From positions 186,001 through 250,000 of the forward strand of contig NZ_JAGQDC010000001.1 in NCBI RefSeq assembly GCF_023282985.1: a stretch of 64,000 nucleotides of DNA, read 5' to 3'. This DNA comes from Serratia silvae (GTDB taxonomy: Bacteria; Pseudomonadota; Gammaproteobacteria; Enterobacterales; Enterobacteriaceae). Below the pieces are notes generated by a model. The model was not told the origin of the DNA. It ran no database searches and saw only the letters and a program-made list of their open reading frames with translations. A program made the position numbers and the translations under genes. Shown here one piece after another: positions 39,797-45,642 of the stretch (within the stretch, counting starts at the first letter, position 1; each line of letters starts with the position of its first letter).

Positions 39797-42163
39797 TCAG
39801 AACAGGCCAATCTGCCTGGTTACCAACGCCGAAAAATCGTCGTACAGGAAGGGAAGTATAGCGTCTGCCACCGGTTGCAGCTGGCGTTCGAGATAATGAT
39901 CGTAATCGATCGCGGATTGCCGGGTTTCCAGCGGCTCTGGCCCGGCTAGCGTCATTACATAGCTGATCCAGCCACCGTTCTGATATTGCAGTGGCCGCCC
40001 CTGTTGACGATTATAGTCATCGGCCAGCCGGGCTGCACGGGCGTGGGGGGGAACATTGCGTTGATAGTCGTCCAGCTTGCGACGTAGGCGTTTACGGTAC
40101 ACCAGCCGGTCGTCAAATTCGCCGCTCAGCGTTTTGGCCACGTAATCGCGCACAAAGTCCTGGTAGGGCTGGCGCTTGAAGATGCGTTGATAGAGTTGTT
40201 GCTGAAACTGCTGCGCTAACGGGGTCCAGTCGGTACGCACCGTTTCCAACCCTTTATATACCATCTCTTCACTGCCGTCCGGTTTGCTGATCAACCCGGC
40301 GTAGCGTTTTTTGCTGCCCTGTTCGGCACCGCGGATGGTGGGCATTAAAAAGCGGGAATAGTGGGTTTCAAACTCCAGCTCCAGCGCATTTTCCAGCCCA
40401 TATTGCTGTTGCAGGTGCTGCTGCCACCATTGATTGACGTGATCGAGCAGTTCGCGGCCAATCTCGGCGGCCTGCTGTTCACTGTGGGCCTTTTTCAGCC
40501 AGACAAAGGTCGAGTCCGTATCGCCGTAGATCACCTGGTAACCTTTAGCTTCGATCAACTCCCGCGTCTGGCGCATGATCTCGTGGCCGCGCAGGGTGAT
40601 CGACGAGGCCAGCCTGGGATCGAAGAAGCGACAGCCGCTCGATCCCAGCACGCCGTAGAACGCATTCATGATGATCTTGAGCGCCTGCGACAGCGGTTTA
40701 TTGTTGTGGCGTTTGGCTGCTTCGCGCCCCTGCCAGATCTGGCGAACGATCTCTGGAAGGCAGTGTTTGCTGCGGGAGAAGCGAGCCTGGCGAAAACCTG
40801 GCACCGAGTTTTCATCATCCGGGTGCTGCATGCCTTCTACCAGCCCGACGGGATCGATCAGGAAGGTGCGGATGATCGACGGATACAGGCTTTTGTAATC
40901 CAGTACCAGCACCGAATCATACAGACCAGGCTGTGAATCCATCACAAAGCCGCCGGGGCTGTGCTCTTCCGGCAACTCCCCAAGGTTAGGGGCCACATAG
41001 CCCTGACGATGCATGCGCGGGATATAAAGATGGTTGAAGGCCGCCACTGAACCGCCGCTGCGATCGGCCGCCAAGCCGGTCACGGTGGCGCGTTCGAGCA
41101 GGAAGGTCAACAGTTCGGTTTTGGCGAAAATGCGCGTCACCAGCTCGCAGTCTTTTAGGTTATAGCGGGCCAGAGCGGGTTTATCTTCGGCAAAACGGCG
41201 GTCTATTTCTGCCATCCGCTGGTAAGGGTTGTCGAGCGATTTCCCTTCCCCAAGCAGCGCTTGCGCCACATATTCCAGGCTGAAGGACGGGAAGTTCCAG
41301 GTGGCCGATTTCAGCGCCTCGATACCGTCGATAATCAATCGCCCGGAGGCCGAGGCGAAGAAGTGGTTTTGCTTAAAGCCGTGCTCGCGCCATTCCAACA
41401 GGTTACCGCCACGGCCAAAACGCAGGGGGATCTGATAACGTTCGGCGTGTTTCTGCAGCACCCGCAAATCGAACTGCACCAGGTTCCAGCCGATGATGGC
41501 ATCGGGATCGTGCTGCTCCAGCCATTGGTTAAGGCGTTCCAGCAATTGTGGGCGGCTGTTGCAGTACTCCAGATCGAAATCCAGCACTTTAGTGCCGCCG
41601 TTGGCCGGGCCGAGCATATACACTTGGCGCTGGCCGCAGCCTTCCAGCGCGATGGAGTAAAGCTCGCCATGGGCGGTGGTTTCGATATCCAGTGATACCA
41701 GCTTTAGAGTGGGGCGGTAGTCTGGGGCTGGCTTCATCTGGCCGTTGAGCCACAGGCCATGACCGTCGGGTTGGCCGTTGAACCACACCGGGGCGGTGAT
41801 AAAGCGCTCCATCAGATAGCGTTCCGGCGGGCGGATATCGGCCTCAAACACGTTGACGCCGCCCTCTTTGAGCAGCTTTTCCAGCTTGATCAACTGACGA
41901 TGCTGGCGGCAATAAAGGCCCATCACCGGACGGGAATGGAAATCCTGCAGCGGCAAGGGTTTCAGCTCGACATGACGCTCTTCACGCAGCAGCAACTCTG
42001 CCCGCTGACGCTGTTCGGCGGGAATGAATGCCACGGAGGTCTGTGGGGCCAGCCGTAGCCGCTGTGGCCCGCTATCGGTTGCCAGCCAGAACTCAACTTC
42101 GGTCCCGGCGGGTGTATCACGCCAATGGCGAGTGAGTAAGAAACCCTGCTGTAGAGATGTCAC
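39797..42163 (-). CDS. polB: DNA polymerase II
   Basis: A 788-residue family B polymerase used in lesion bypass and replication restart under SOS. The exonuclease motif [17 protein letters not shown] is near residue 158. Polymerase motif A is [17 protein letters not shown] and motif C is [12 protein letters not shown]. Length is near E. coli Pol II (783). The start is GTG at 42163 with AGGA upstream. A degenerate LexA-like box lies in the promoter, consistent with SOS control as for E. coli dinA/polB. Confidence 0.98.
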
Positions 42164-42201
42164 TAGTTCCTGAGCATCGATGATCTATAGATGTTTATAG
42201 T

Positions 42202-42217
42202 ATGGGTTTTTATACAG
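42202..42217 (-). promoter_or_regulatory. Possible LexA box of polB
   Basis: On the minus strand CTGTATAAAAACCCAT keeps the left LexA half-site (CTGT) and the AT-rich centre, but the right half is CCAT instead of ACAG. It lies between a TAGACA -35 and a CATACT -10, the same place as in E. coli. The site may be weak. Confidence 0.42.
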
Positions 42218-42333
42218 TGATTGTCTATTACTGGCCGGATTGGCTAAATCTACATACAATTCAACGATTGACTCCTCCTGGCCCGCGCCGGACAATCCTT
42301 CACCCATACGTTTAGCTTACCAACAGAGGTTTA

Positions 42334-43101
42334 ATGGAAGCCTATTTACAGCAGTTGATCACCCAGTCATTGGCTTTCACCCTGGTGGTGGTCATGTTGG
42401 TGGCGTTCCTGGAGTCGCTGGCGTTGGTCGGTTTGTTATTGCCGGGCACGGTGATGATGGCCAGCATTGGCGCACTGATCGGCAGCGGACAGGTGGACTT
42501 TTATATGGCCTGGGGGGCTGGCATTGTCGGCTGTCTGCTGGGAGATTGGATTTCCTACTTTATCGGCCGGGCTTTCAAGGGGCCGCTGCACCGTTGGTCG
42601 TTCCTGAAAAAGAACAAGGCGATGCTGGATAAAACCGAGCATGCGCTGCATCAGCACAGTATCGTTACGATTTTGATCGGCCGTTTTGTTGGCCCGACGC
42701 GCCCGCTGGTGCCGATGGTAGCTGGCATGCTCGATCTGCCTCCCTACAAATTTGCCCTGCCGAATATCATCGGTTGCCTGACCTGGCCACCGGTCTATTT
42801 CTTTCCCGGCATTCTGGCGGGAGTCGCCATCGATATTCCCGCCAGCGCCAACAGCGCGTTGTTCAAATGGCTGTTGTTTGGCGTGGTGGTACTGTTGTGG
42901 CTGGCAGCTTGGCTGAGTTGGCGCTGGTGGCGTGAAGGGAAGCGCAGTGCCGATAAGCTTACACGCTGGCTAACGCCGATGCGGCTGCGGTTGGCCTGTA
43001 TTGCCAGCTGGGTAGGGGCGCTGGTGTGTTTCTATTATATGCATCAGCAGGCGTTGATGCCGGTATATCGACACCTGCTGTGGAAAGTGCTGGCGGGCTG
43101 A
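42334..43101 (+). CDS. yabI: DedA-family membrane protein YabI
   Basis: A 255-residue inner-membrane protein of the DedA (SNARE-associated, VTT) superfamily. Members recycle undecaprenyl phosphate or other lipids and support membrane potential and drug resistance. The family motifs are GLLLPGTVMMASIGALIGSG, GDWISYFIGRAF and the arginine/proline-rich FVGPTRPLVPMVAGM. Length is near E. coli YabI (254). It is divergent from polB and precedes a bidirectional terminator shared with the antisense RNA of the dinQ-like locus. Confidence 0.94.
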   Translation: MEAYLQQLITQSLAFTLVVVMLVAFLESLALVGLLLPGTVMMASIGALIGSGQVDFYMAWGAGIVGCLLGDWISYFIGRAFKGPLHRWSFLKKNKAMLDKTEHALHQHSIVTILIGRFVGPTRPLVPMVAGMLDLPPYKFALPNIIGCLTWPPVYFFPGILAGVAIDIPASANSALFKWLLFGVVVLLWLAAWLSWRWWREGKRSADKLTRWLTPMRLRLACIASWVGALVCFYYMHQQALMPVYRHLLWKVLAG

Positions 43102-43117
43102 CGCTAAAATTTTGGCA

Positions 43118-43150
43118 CAAAAAAACCGACTGGTGAGGTCGGTTTTTTTT
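43118..43150. terminator. Bidirectional terminator of dedA and the antisense RNA
   Basis: AAACCGAC / GTCGGTTT stem with a seven-base loop, an A-run on the left and a nine-base T-run on the right. It ends dedA on the plus strand and the small RNA on the minus strand. Confidence 0.88.
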
Positions 43151-43205
43151 TATTTCCCGCTCTAGAGCTGGTAACTCTGACCGGTTGAAGCCGCATTCAT
43201 CTAAC
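43118..43205 (-). ncRNA. Predicted antisense RNA to the dinQ-like leader (AgrA/AgrB-like)
   Basis: A promoter on the minus strand (TTGACA at 43241-43236, 17-base spacer, TAAAAT at 43218-43213) points to a start at G43205. A terminator ends the RNA near 43118, giving about 88 bases with no open frame of note. Its first 20 or so bases are the complement of the repeat at 43186-43206, which occurs again, identical, at 43402-43422 inside the dinQ-like leader. The RNA can therefore pair perfectly with that mRNA over about 20 bases and imperfectly over about 30. E. coli dinQ is controlled by similar short antisense RNAs (AgrA, AgrB). Expression is not shown here. Confidence 0.8.
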
Positions 43206-43206
43206 A
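43175..43206 (+). repeat. Direct repeat, copy 1 (antisense RNA side)
   Basis: Bases 43186-43206 are identical to 43402-43422. The match continues imperfectly leftward (CTCTG, then CCGG) to 43175. Copy 1 lies at the 5' end of the minus-strand RNA. Confidence 0.93.
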
Positions 43207-43212
43207 GGATTA

Positions 43213-43241
43213 ATTTTATCTTTGATCCCCTCCAATGTCAA
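43213..43241 (-). promoter_or_regulatory. Promoter of the antisense RNA
   Basis: TTGACA, 17 bases, TAAAAT on the minus strand: a full-consensus -35 and a one-mismatch -10. It is much stronger than anything seen for the toxin, as expected for an antitoxin RNA. Confidence 0.85.
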
Positions 43242-43279
43242 AAGCTCAGAAATCGGATATCTAGTATGTCGTGCCTTGG

Positions 43280-43300
43280 GCTGATTAAGATATAATCAGC
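43280..43300 (+). promoter_or_regulatory. Probable dinQ-like -10 region within a perfect palindrome
   Basis: GCTGATTA and TAATCAGC form an inverted repeat with a five-base centre. It contains TATAAT (43291-43296), which would start transcription near 43303. The -35 is poor. The palindrome is 21 bases and does not fit LexA (CTGT-N8-ACAG). Confidence 0.5.
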
Positions 43301-43389
43301 GGTTTAGCTCTGTTGCTGTCTTTACTTCGGTGTGCGCATGTACATATTCAAGCCCTGGTCGGGTGTACGGGGGGTGCCGTTATCCGATG

Positions 43390-43422
43390 CTCTGGCCGGA
43401 GTGAAGCCGCATTCATCTAACA
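43390..43422 (+). repeat. Direct repeat, copy 2 (toxin leader side)
   Basis: Identical over 21 bases to copy 1 at 43186-43206, starting about 100 bases into the predicted toxin mRNA and ending 73 bases before its start codon. It also spans the end of a 29-codon upstream frame (43338-43427). Confidence 0.93.
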
Positions 43423-43473
43423 ACTGAGTGCTGCGCTGTGACAGGCAATGTAAGGGTAAGCGGCGGTGGCTCA

Positions 43474-43488
43474 CTCCATGTTATGGAG
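43474..43488 (+). promoter_or_regulatory. Hairpin hiding the dinQ-like ribosome binding site
   Basis: CTCCAT (43474-43479) pairs with ATGGAG (43483-43488) over a three-base loop. The GGAG within the second arm is the only ribosome site for the GTG start at 43496, so translation should need an upstream standby site or a structural change. Confidence 0.7.
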
Positions 43489-43495
43489 AAAACGG

Positions 43496-43585
43496 GTGAT
43501 TGATATCGATAAGGCAATCATCGTTCTTGGGGCGCTGGTCGCGTTACTGGAACTGATCCGTTATGTGCTTCAGTTACTGAACTGA
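43496..43585 (+). CDS. dinQ: DinQ-like type I toxin peptide
   Basis: A 29-residue peptide, one hydrophobic helix, whose core KAIIVLGALVALLELIRYV and tail LQLLN match E. coli DinQ (27 residues) nearly position for position. Two extra residues lie near the N-terminus. E. coli DinQ inserts into the inner membrane, lowers membrane potential and is held back by antisense RNA. The start is GTG at 43496, with GGAG eight bases upstream inside a hairpin. The leader of about 190 bases, the antisense repeat and the terminator all support a real gene. Its place between dedA and ilvN differs from E. coli, where dinQ is near gor. Confidence 0.86.
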   Translation: MIDIDKAIIVLGALVALLELIRYVLQLLN

Positions 43586-43601
43586 TAACGGAAACGTAGC
43601 T

Positions 43602-43631
43602 AAGGCCGGGGGCTAACCACTCCCGGCCTTT
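43602..43631. terminator. Terminator between the dinQ-like gene and ilvN
   Basis: AAGGCCGGG / CCCGGCCTT stem with an eleven-base loop. A-T flanks allow use in both directions by the convergent genes. Confidence 0.78.
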
Positions 43632-43650
43632 AACATTCAGCCGCGAAAGC

Positions 43651-43944
43651 TTACTGGAAGAATGCCTCCAACTGCTCAAACACCCGCATATCTTCGTTAT
43701 GGCGTTTCACCTGTAATACATCCTCCAGCTTTTCAACCTGGCTGATCATCTGCACCAGACGCTGATCGTCGGCCACCAATAGCCAAATGCGGCTCTGGGT
43801 CCCATCTTTCAGCGGCATACACAAAATACCTTCCACGTTAAAGGCACGGCGGGCAAACAGGCCGCAAACGTGGGTCATTACGCCCGGATGGTTCCGTACC
43901 GCCAACTCCAGGATCACCTGTGGATTCTTTTGTAGTGATTGCAT
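43651..43944 (-). CDS. ilvN: Acetolactate synthase I regulatory subunit
   Basis: A 97-residue ACT-domain subunit that activates IlvB and confers valine feedback inhibition. [27 protein letters not shown] at residues 10-36 matches E. coli IlvN (96 residues) closely. It lies three bases downstream of ilvB and ends at the convergent terminator shared with the dinQ-like gene. Confidence 0.97.
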
Positions 43945-43947
43945 GGC

Positions 43948-45642
43948 TTATTCTCCAATCATTTCGATGTTGGCGGCACCCGGTGGCACCATTGGGTAGA
44001 CTTTTTCGTTGATATCGATCAGCGCGTGGATCAGGCAAGGGCCAGGGCGTTGGATCGCGGCCAGCAACGCGGCCTGTGGATCTGCCTCAGCATTCAAATC
44101 GCAGGTGTCCAGGCCAAAACCGGCGGCAATCTTCAGGAAATCGGTACGCTTTGGATAGGTGGCGGCAAAGATATGCTGTTGATAGAACAGCGTCTGCTGC
44201 TGGTGTACCAACCCCAGGGCCTGGTTGTTCATCAGGATGATTTTCACATCCAGATTGTGCTCAACGGCGGTCGCCATCTCTTGAATATTCATCATCAGGC
44301 TGCCGTCGCCGGAGAAACACAGGACCTTACGCTGTGGCTCTGCCAAGGCAGCACCAATCGCAGCAGGCAAACCAAAGCCCATAGTGCCCAAACCGCCGGA
44401 AGTCAGCCACTGGCGCGGACGGCTCAGCGGATAAGCCTGGGCTACCCACATCTGATGCTGGCCTACATCGGTGGTGATAATGGCGCTTTCGTCCACGCAG
44501 CGTGCCGTGGCCTTAACCAACCCGTAATGACTTAATGGATCTGCCACGTTCGGCATGTTGATCGGGAATTCACGCTTCAGATCGTTAACGGTGTTCATCC
44601 ATTCGGTACGCGGTTGTGCCTCGATCATCGGTAACAGCTGTTGCAGCACCTGGCCGACGTCGGCATGGATGGCAATATTGGCCTGTTTAACCTTGCCCAG
44701 TTCGGCACGGTCGATGTCCACGTGGATTATTTTGGCATTCGGGCAGAATTGCTCAGTTTTACCAATTGCCCGGTCGTCGAAGCGGGCGCCCAGCACGATC
44801 AGCAGATCGGCTTCTTGCAGGATAAAGTTGGTGCTGCGTGCGGCGTGCATCCCCAACATGCCCAATGACAGCGGGTGTTCTACCGGCATCGCACCCAACG
44901 CCATCAGCGTCATGGTGGTTGGCAGGTTGGAGCGCTCGGCCATTTCCAGCGCGGGTTTATGGGCTTCTGCGCAGATAATGCCGCCGCCCAGATACAGAAT
45001 GGGACGCTTGGCCTGATTGATCATGGCCGCGGCCTGTTCGACCTGCTTGCTATCAAAGGCCGGTGGGGCGTCTGGTACGGCCATTGGCGGTAACGAATCC
45101 CACTCAATTTCGGCGGTTTGCACGTCTTTCGGAATGTCGATCCACACCGGGCCTGGGCGGCCGGATTCGGCAATGCGAAATGCGTCGCAGATCACCTGCG
45201 GCAGATCGCTGATATCGCGTACCAGATGGTTGTATTTGGTTATCGGGATGGAAATACCGTAGGTATCGACCTCCTGGAAGGCATCTGTGCCGATCATCGA
45301 AGAAGATACCTGGCCGGTGATGCACACCAGCGGGATCGAATCGAGTTTGGCATCGGCAATGGCGGTCACCAGATTGGTGGCTCCCGGGCCACTGGAAGCG
45401 ATGCAGACCGCGGCCTTGCCGTTGGTACGTGCCATGCCCTGCGCCATAAAACCGGCCCCTTGCTCGTGGCGGGCCAGCACGTGCTGGATGACGGTGCTTT
45501 GGCTCAGAGCATCGTACAGCGGCAGCGCTGCGCCACCGGGAATGCCTGCAATTGTGGTGATACCCTGGCGCTCCAGCAGATGAACGATCAGCTGTGCGCC
45601 GGTAATACGTTGGCCTTGGTGTGGCGTGCCCGAAGTTGCCAT
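43948..45642 (-). CDS. ilvB: Acetolactate synthase I catalytic subunit
   Basis: A 564-residue ThDP enzyme making 2-acetolactate or acetohydroxybutyrate for valine, leucine and isoleucine. Motifs are the activating glutamate in VLARHEQGAGFMAQGMAR, the GDGSLMMNIQEMATAVEHNLDVKIILMNN diphosphate-binding stretch and a FAD-site middle domain. The start MATSGTPHQGQ at 45642 has AAGGA upstream. The frame stays open to 45915 but overlaps the attenuator and ivbL, so that part is not coding for IlvB. ivbL and its terminator precede it, implying valine/leucine attenuation. Confidence 0.98.
   Translation of the reverse strand: MATSGTPHQGQRITGAQLIVHLLERQGITTIAGIPGGAALPLYDALSQSTVIQHVLARHEQGAGFMAQGMARTNGKAAVCIASSGPGATNLVTAIADAKLDSIPLVCITGQVSSSMIGTDAFQEVDTYGISIPITKYNHLVRDISDLPQVICDAFRIAESGRPGPVWIDIPKDVQTAEIEWDSLPPMAVPDAPPAFDSKQVEQAAAMINQAKRPILYLGGGIICAEAHKPALEMAERSNLPTTMTLMALGAMPVEHPLSLGMLGMHAARSTNFILQEADLLIVLGARFDDRAIGKTEQFCPNAKIIHVDIDRAELGKVKQANIAIHADVGQVLQQLLPMIEAQPRTEWMNTVNDLKREFPINMPNVADPLSHYGLVKATARCVDESAIITTDVGQHQMWVAQAYPLSRPRQWLTSGGLGTMGFGLPAAIGAALAEPQRKVLCFSGDGSLMMNIQEMATAVEHNLDVKIILMNNQALGLVHQQQTLFYQQHIFAATYPKRTDFLKIAAGFGLDTCDLNAEADPQAALLAAIQRPGPCLIHALIDINEKVYPMVPPGAANIEMIGE

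What the first reader, a model, noticed from the sequence alone, without database searches (positions are those of the whole stretch)
43118..43631. Complete dinQ-like toxin locus with antisense RNA between dedA and ilvN
The gap between two ordinary genes encodes a 29-residue hydrophobic peptide matching E. coli DinQ nearly residue for residue, a leader of about 190 bases, a terminator, and an oppositely directed small RNA. Peptide, leader, promoter, repeat and terminators are all seen in the sequence. DinQ toxicity and antisense control are recalled from E. coli. The locus is easily missed by gene callers and lies at a different chromosomal place from E. coli.
Basis: partly seen in the sequence, partly recalled or inferred. 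Interest (0 to 1): 0.88.

Follow-up and report, generated by a model that had tools for sequence, protein, structure and literature searches.

The report
DinQ–AgrB toxin–antisense RNA locus
A Serratia-related bacterium carries, between two ordinary genes, a small membrane-toxin gene with its matching antisense-RNA antitoxin; the pair belongs to a family already known from E. coli and plasmids, but here it lacks the DNA-damage switch that gave the E. coli gene its name, and the part where antitoxin and toxin mRNA recognise each other appears to have been swapped as one block between species.

Summary
Window 43117-43206 (minus) is an Rfam-recognised AgrB antisense RNA, and 43496-43585 (plus, GTG start) encodes a 29-aa DinQ peptide that passes NCBI's DinQ model (88% identical to E. 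coli DinQ over 26 aa). The AgrB 5' end is complementary to the dinQ leader (21-nt exact repeat; -61.5 kcal/mol against -26 for shuffles). It is a member of the described dinQ/dqlB-agrB type I toxin-antitoxin family, not a new kind. (1) No LexA operator, although the organism has a normal LexA regulon; SOS control was seen only in Escherichia/Citrobacter loci. (2) The ~0.5-kb module sits at a site that is empty in three congeners and one further genus. (3) Its recognition block (AgrB 5' half, both promoters, leader, target) matches a more distant species (95%) rather than the closest (83%), while the flanks show the reverse: exchange as one unit. (4) The genome has three further AgrB-like RNAs but no second toxin; two of those sites carry dinQ in sister species. 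Toxicity, transcription and RNA ends were not tested. Overall: ordinary family membership with an interesting evolutionary twist.

The parts
43117..43206 (-). AgrB-type antisense RNA (antitoxin), predicted 5' end ~43206, 3' end at terminator ~43118
   Evidence: Rfam RF02891 45.6 bits > gathering 40; folds better than shuffles, z -3.9
43213..43241 (-). AgrB promoter TTGACA-17-TAAAAT
   Evidence: 11 of 12 consensus bases
43119..43149 (-). AgrB rho-independent terminator; T runs on both sides, so may also end the yabI-like gene transcript
   Evidence: terminator scan
43175..43206 (-). AgrB antisense (recognition) segment; 43186-43206 identical to 43402-43422
   Evidence: 21-nt exact repeat, longest in 500 shuffles 14; duplex -61.5 kcal/mol with dinQ leader
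43291..43296 (+). dinQ promoter -10 TATAAT (weak -35); no LexA operator; predicted start ~43303
   Evidence: TATAATCAG then GGTTAGCTCTG motif shared with relatives; LexA best score 0.3 against 21.8-23.3 in Escherichia/Citrobacter
43303..43495 (+). dinQ leader (~193 nt); homologue of the E. coli +44 processing point near 43347
   Evidence: alignment to E. coli and sister loci; fold z -3.1
43390..43422 (+). AgrB target in the dinQ leader; its GGAGTGA can also pair with TCACTCC at 43471-43477
43471..43488 (+). anti-SD (43471-43477) and SD GGAG (43485-43488), predicted hairpin that closes the start site
   Evidence: elements present in all 12 loci examined
43496..43585 (+). dinQ ORF, GTG start, 29-aa hydrophobic single-helix peptide
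   Evidence: NCBIfam NF041472 52.1 bits; 88% identity to E. coli DinQ over 26 aa; a 35-aa upstream-extended form models as one helix, pLDDT 95
43600..43634 (+). dinQ terminator (GGCCGGGGG...CCCGGCC TTTAA)
   Evidence: fold; empty-site comparison
43155..43424 (.). exchanged recognition block (AgrB 5' half, both promoters, dinQ leader, target)
   Evidence: 95.2% to G001, 83.0% to G004, while flanks are 97.9-98.6% to G004; informative sites 19:0

Best explanation
This is a chromosomal dinQ-agrB type I toxin-antitoxin module. AgrB is made from a strong promoter and base-pairs with ~31 nt of the dinQ leader. The dinQ mRNA is probably made in an inactive form: its 5' end pairs with the target segment and the Shine-Dalgarno sequence is shut in a hairpin. 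After removal of ~44 nt the target can pair with the anti-SD sequence, which opens the start site; AgrB prevents this by occupying the target. [quoted passage not shown] Unlike E. coli dinQ it is not under LexA control, so it should respond to the AgrB/dinQ RNA balance rather than to DNA damage. The module was most likely inserted once into the yabI-like/ilvN gap in the ancestor of four species of the genus, and its recognition block was later exchanged as a unit with a related allele. Shown here: sequence anatomy, complementarity, synteny, mosaic, absence of a LexA box. Inferred from E. coli and plasmid experiments: toxicity, AgrB repression, processing, membrane action.
For: AgrB Rfam match; DinQ NCBIfam match; E. 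coli orthologue with GTG start and same order; cognate pairing -61.5 kcal/mol against shuffled -25.8 +/- 3.9, own AgrB best or near best for most targets; each site-A allele keeps complementarity although alleles differ; occupied in G000, G001, G003, G004 and empty in G002, G005, G006, G022; recombination pattern; no LexA box while lexA itself carries canonical ones. Experiments on relatives: DinQ toxic and membrane-depolarising, AgrB represses (PMC3567139); plasmid DqlB toxic, agrB rescues, compensatory mutations prove pairing (PMC12365149); IncX3 copy stabilises a plasmid (PMC12317039).
Against: No transcript or toxicity data for this organism. The folding model gives the predicted switch for the window (lock-target 0.99, then target-antiSD 0.61, then closed with AgrB) but not for E. 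coli, the experimentally studied case, nor for most sister loci, so the structural step is weakly supported. The dinQ -35 box is poor. Selection on the peptide cannot be separated from short-time conservation (1-4 synonymous, 0-3 non-synonymous codon differences).
Confidence: 0.87

Rival explanations
1. The locus is a decaying remnant: the toxin frame persists by recent descent only and the AgrB segment is kept because its hairpin now terminates the yabI-like gene.
For: Related sites in the same genome have lost dinQ but kept AgrB; one locus in G033 has collapsed, AgrB repeat joined to the dinQ 3' part without promoters; the module replaces the sequence found in the empty gap.
Against: Toxin frame, SD, both promoters, target and terminators are intact in all four species at this site; leader 3' part plus ORF are 92-99% identical, more conserved than the neighbouring CDS for distant pairs; complementarity is kept in each allele.
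Confidence: 0.1
2. It is an SOS-controlled dinQ like that of E. coli, giving DNA-damage-induced membrane effects.
For: Peptide and leader closely resemble E. coli dinQ.
Against: Best LexA-matrix score 0.3 near the promoter, against 21.8-23.3 in Escherichia/Citrobacter loci and at least 15 for the reference boxes; the genome's own lexA has two canonical operators.
Confidence: 0.04
3. The mosaic block reflects functional constraint or parallel change of the repeats instead of recombination.
For: The repeats must stay complementary, so they change together.
Against: The pattern covers promoters and spacer as well as repeats; the block is less conserved than the flanks for the other pairs, so constraint cannot make G000-G001 alone 95% identical; Fisher p 2e-21 (G000-G004) and 7e-4 (G000-G001).
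Confidence: 0.07

Closest known systems
E. coli K-12 dinQ-agrAB (gor-arsR), PMC3567139
   Same: Peptide 88% identical over 26 aa, GTG start, SD hairpin, leader length, +44 region, AgrB antisense of ~31 nt, order and orientation
   Different: No LexA operator; one antisense RNA instead of two; two extra residues near the start (VIDID for VID); other chromosomal site
Plasmid dqlB-agrB (pOXA-48, IncX3), PMC12365149, PMC12317039
   Same: Same layout: agrB terminator, opposed promoters, leader target, small toxin; single agrB; DNA about 67-70% identical
   Different: Window peptide fails NCBI's DqlB model (12.1 bits, cut-off 35); chromosomal, so plasmid addiction does not apply; antisense specificity differs
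dinQ-like family of Kristiansen et al. 2016 (RNA 22:1739; paper not held, known from memory and from its citation in PMC12365149)
   Same: Recalled to describe dinQ-like genes with similar leaders throughout Enterobacteriaceae
   Different: Could not check whether this species or this site is listed
zor-orz type I systems
   Same: OrzO-P model matches the AgrB terminator hairpin; a dinQ/zor leader resemblance is reported in PMC11264685
   Different: OrzO-P score 32 is below gathering 60 and covers the terminator only; the toxin is DinQ

Membership tests
dinQ/dqlB-agrB type I toxin-antitoxin | Small hydrophobic DinQ peptide | tested here: met
   NCBIfam NF041472 52.1 bits, cut-off 30
dinQ/dqlB-agrB type I toxin-antitoxin | AgrB antisense RNA on the opposite strand with own promoter and terminator | tested here: met
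   Rfam RF02891 45.6 bits, gathering 40; promoter 11/12
dinQ/dqlB-agrB type I toxin-antitoxin | ~31 nt complementarity between AgrB 5' end and dinQ leader | tested here: met
   21 nt exact plus a shorter block; -61.5 kcal/mol
dinQ/dqlB-agrB type I toxin-antitoxin | Leader with SD-closing hairpin and target/anti-SD/SD switch | tested here: inconclusive
   Elements present in all 12 loci; folding supports the switch in the window but not in E. coli
dinQ/dqlB-agrB type I toxin-antitoxin | Peptide toxic, AgrB neutralises | not testable with these tools
   Known for E. coli and plasmid relatives
SOS-regulated dinQ (E. coli type) | LexA operator over the dinQ promoter | tested here: not met
   Score 0.3; E. 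coli 23.3
SOS-regulated dinQ (E. coli type) | Second antisense RNA AgrA between agrB and dinQ | tested here: not met
   One AgrB hit in 42000-45000
plasmid DqlB | Matches NCBIfam NF041473 | tested here: not met
   12.1 bits, cut-off 35

The most novel reading that the evidence does not exclude
dinQ-agrB modules form an allelic recognition system: the AgrB 5' end, the mRNA lock and the target are inherited and exchanged as one specificity block while the toxin stays, and chromosomal AgrB RNAs that lost their own toxin persist as immunity in trans against incoming dinQ/dqlB elements that carry the matching allele. In favour: the block exchange, and the orphan AgrB at site C pairing at -55 to -58 kcal/mol with a dinQ leader from a Citrobacter-labelled contig. 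Against: no strong match to the sampled plasmid dqlB targets, and the orphan RNAs may simply be remnants or terminators.
Probability: 0.15. Interest if true: 0.65.

Novelty: new member of a known kind. Interest (0 to 1): 0.4.

Why it matters
DinQ is named and discussed as a DNA-damage-induced peptide. Here the same peptide sits behind a promoter with no LexA site, as in nearly all dinQ loci outside Escherichia/Citrobacter examined, so SOS control looks like a local addition and not the family's general property; names such as 'damage-inducible toxin DinQ' in automatic annotation mislead. The block exchange and the orphan AgrB RNAs give a natural test of how antisense toxin-antitoxin pairs change specificity without killing their host.

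Tried and rejected
Anti-addiction by the orphan AgrB RNAs against plasmid dqlB: eight plasmid dqlB/dinQ leaders give only -25 to -42 kcal/mol with the orphans, in the same range as the unrelated window AgrB (-27 to -43), against about -57 to -63 for cognate plasmid pairs; not supported for these plasmids. A hidden second toxin at the orphan sites: no DinQ-like peptide and no dinQ leader elsewhere in the genome, and no second copy of the orphan-D target. Co-variation of the mRNA 5' lock with the target: cognate usually 3-9 kcal/mol better than the non-cognate mean, but not in E. coli and often matched by the best non-cognate; too weak to claim. Folding as proof of the switch: the benchmark failed for E. 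coli. The palindrome CTGATTA-N5-TAATCAG over the dinQ -10 was considered as an operator; its left half changes in G003 and G004 and other loci lack it, so not claimed. Phage origin: no match in phage records. Short-peptide tblastn on plasmids returned nothing at E 1, a sensitivity limit, as the DNA search found thousands. One four-sequence alignment used wrong coordinates and was discarded; one script failed and was rerun; one call had a wrong argument.

Full report
Where it is. The feature lies between a DedA/VTT-domain gene (42334-43101, yabI-like, Pfam 73.8 bits) and ilvN (43651-43944 minus, acetolactate synthase small subunit, 173 bits).

Observation. Rfam's AgrB model matches 43117-43204 on the minus strand at 45.6 bits, above its gathering score of 40. 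The promoter in front is TTGACA-17-TAAAAT. On the plus strand a GTG at 43496 begins a 29-codon frame with GGAG seven bases upstream; the peptide passes NCBI's DinQ equivalog model (52.1 bits, cut-off 30) and is 88% identical over 26 residues to E. coli MG1655 DinQ, which also uses GTG. It is very hydrophobic (mean hydropathy 1.56, best 19-residue stretch 2.35) and is modelled as one helix (pLDDT 95). A 21-nt segment occurs exactly at 43186-43206 and 43402-43422; the longest repeat in 500 shuffles was 14. Because AgrB is read in the other direction, the repeat makes the AgrB 5' end antisense to the dinQ leader; the duplex is -61.5 kcal/mol against -25.8 (sd 3.9) for shuffles.

Regulation. E. 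coli dinQ is repressed by LexA (PMC3567139). A matrix built from LexA boxes that I recalled from E. coli scores the E. coli dinQ operator 23.3 and gives 21.8-23.3 at the same distance from the ORF in the Escherichia and Citrobacter orthologues with an 88-92% identical peptide, but 0.3 at best in the window and at most 9.7 within 420 bases upstream of the core in every other dinQ-like locus collected. The organism has a normal LexA system: 29 matches to CTGTAT-N6-ACAG (palindromes counted on both strands) against 5 for the reversed control pattern, and two canonical sites just upstream of its lexA gene. In place of the operator the window and many relatives have TATAATCAG followed by GGTTAGCTCTG. 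A weak LexA site has been predicted for one plasmid dqlB (PMC12211044), so absence is not universal on plasmids.

Mechanism. By analogy with experiments on E. coli dinQ and plasmid dqlB (PMC3567139, PMC12365149, PMC12317039), AgrB blocks dinQ translation by pairing with the leader, and DinQ acts on the inner membrane. The leader has the elements needed for a switch: target GGAGTGA, anti-SD TCACTCC and SD GGAG, found in all 12 loci examined with at most small changes. In the window the folding model gives a closed full-length form (5' end on target 0.99, anti-SD on SD 0.99), a partly opened +44 form (target on anti-SD 0.61), and closure again when AgrB covers the target (0.99). The same calculation fails to show the opening in E. 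coli and most sisters, so it is suggestive only.

History of the site. In G001, G003 and G004 the same gap holds the same module; in G002, G005, G006 and in G022, a different genus, the two genes are about 65 bases or less apart. One insertion in the ancestor of the four is the simplest reading; loss in the others is possible but needs more events. DinQ-type peptides are patchy: 16 of 392 genomes of the family, 7 of 154 genera, with relatives in Kosakonia, Citrobacter, Pantoea, Leminorella, Photorhabdus and Xenorhabdus and similar DNA in at least 5000 plasmid records (some of these match the terminator part only).

Exchange of the recognition block. Flanking DNA says G000 is closest to G004 (97.9-98.6%) and further from G001 (85% in the yabI-like gene, 91% in ilvN and beyond, 95% in the ORF side). 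Between 43155 and 43424 it is the reverse: 95.2% to G001, 83.0% to G004. Informative sites support G000+G004 27 to 2 left of the block, G000+G001 19 to 0 inside it, and G000+G004 6 to 2 to the right of 43601; Fisher tests 2e-21 (G000-G004) and 7e-4 (G000-G001). All three RNA segments that interact lie inside the block; the toxin frame, SD hairpin and terminators lie outside. Direction of transfer is not resolved.

Paralogues. The genome holds four AgrB-like RNAs but one dinQ. Site B has dinQ in G004, site C in G003, while site D lacks it in all three species compared. The orphan at site C keeps a good promoter, those at B and D are poor. The window AgrB binds the window target far better (-61.5) than the orphans do (-34 to -47), so cross-repression is expected to be weak. 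The site-C orphan pairs at -55 to -58 kcal/mol with a dinQ leader from a Citrobacter-labelled contig, so it keeps a recognisable specificity; the site-D orphan also pairs well there (-57.8), so this is not exclusive.

Verdict. A real, intact-looking locus, correctly identified, of a described family. The new points are the missing SOS control, the placed insertion, and the block exchange; none has been tested at the bench, and I did not find them stated in the papers available here, though the 2016 family paper could not be read.

Noticed in passing
L032 3287-3372 (-), L033 3121-3208 (-), L031 2730-2810 (+): Three AgrB-like RNAs in the window's genome without a dinQ toxin; two of these sites carry dinQ in sister species.
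   Followed up: partly
L006 1480-1800 (G033): Collapsed locus: AgrB terminator and repeat joined directly to the dinQ 3' half, both promoters gone, as expected from recombination between the direct repeats.
   Followed up: partly
L037 2641-2924 (-), L038 2618-2918 (-): Full RyfA RNA matches lie opposite weak AgrB-like matches in G033; a relation between RyfA and AgrB-type antisense RNA is possible.
   Followed up: no
L076-L098: Several Photorhabdus genomes carry more than one dinQ-like locus (Xenorhabdus has them too), with no LexA box near the region scanned.
   Followed up: no
L128 (NZ_CP030222.1 35200-35700): Salmonella plasmid match covering 96% of the window module at 70% identity, with no toxin gene annotated there.
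   Followed up: no
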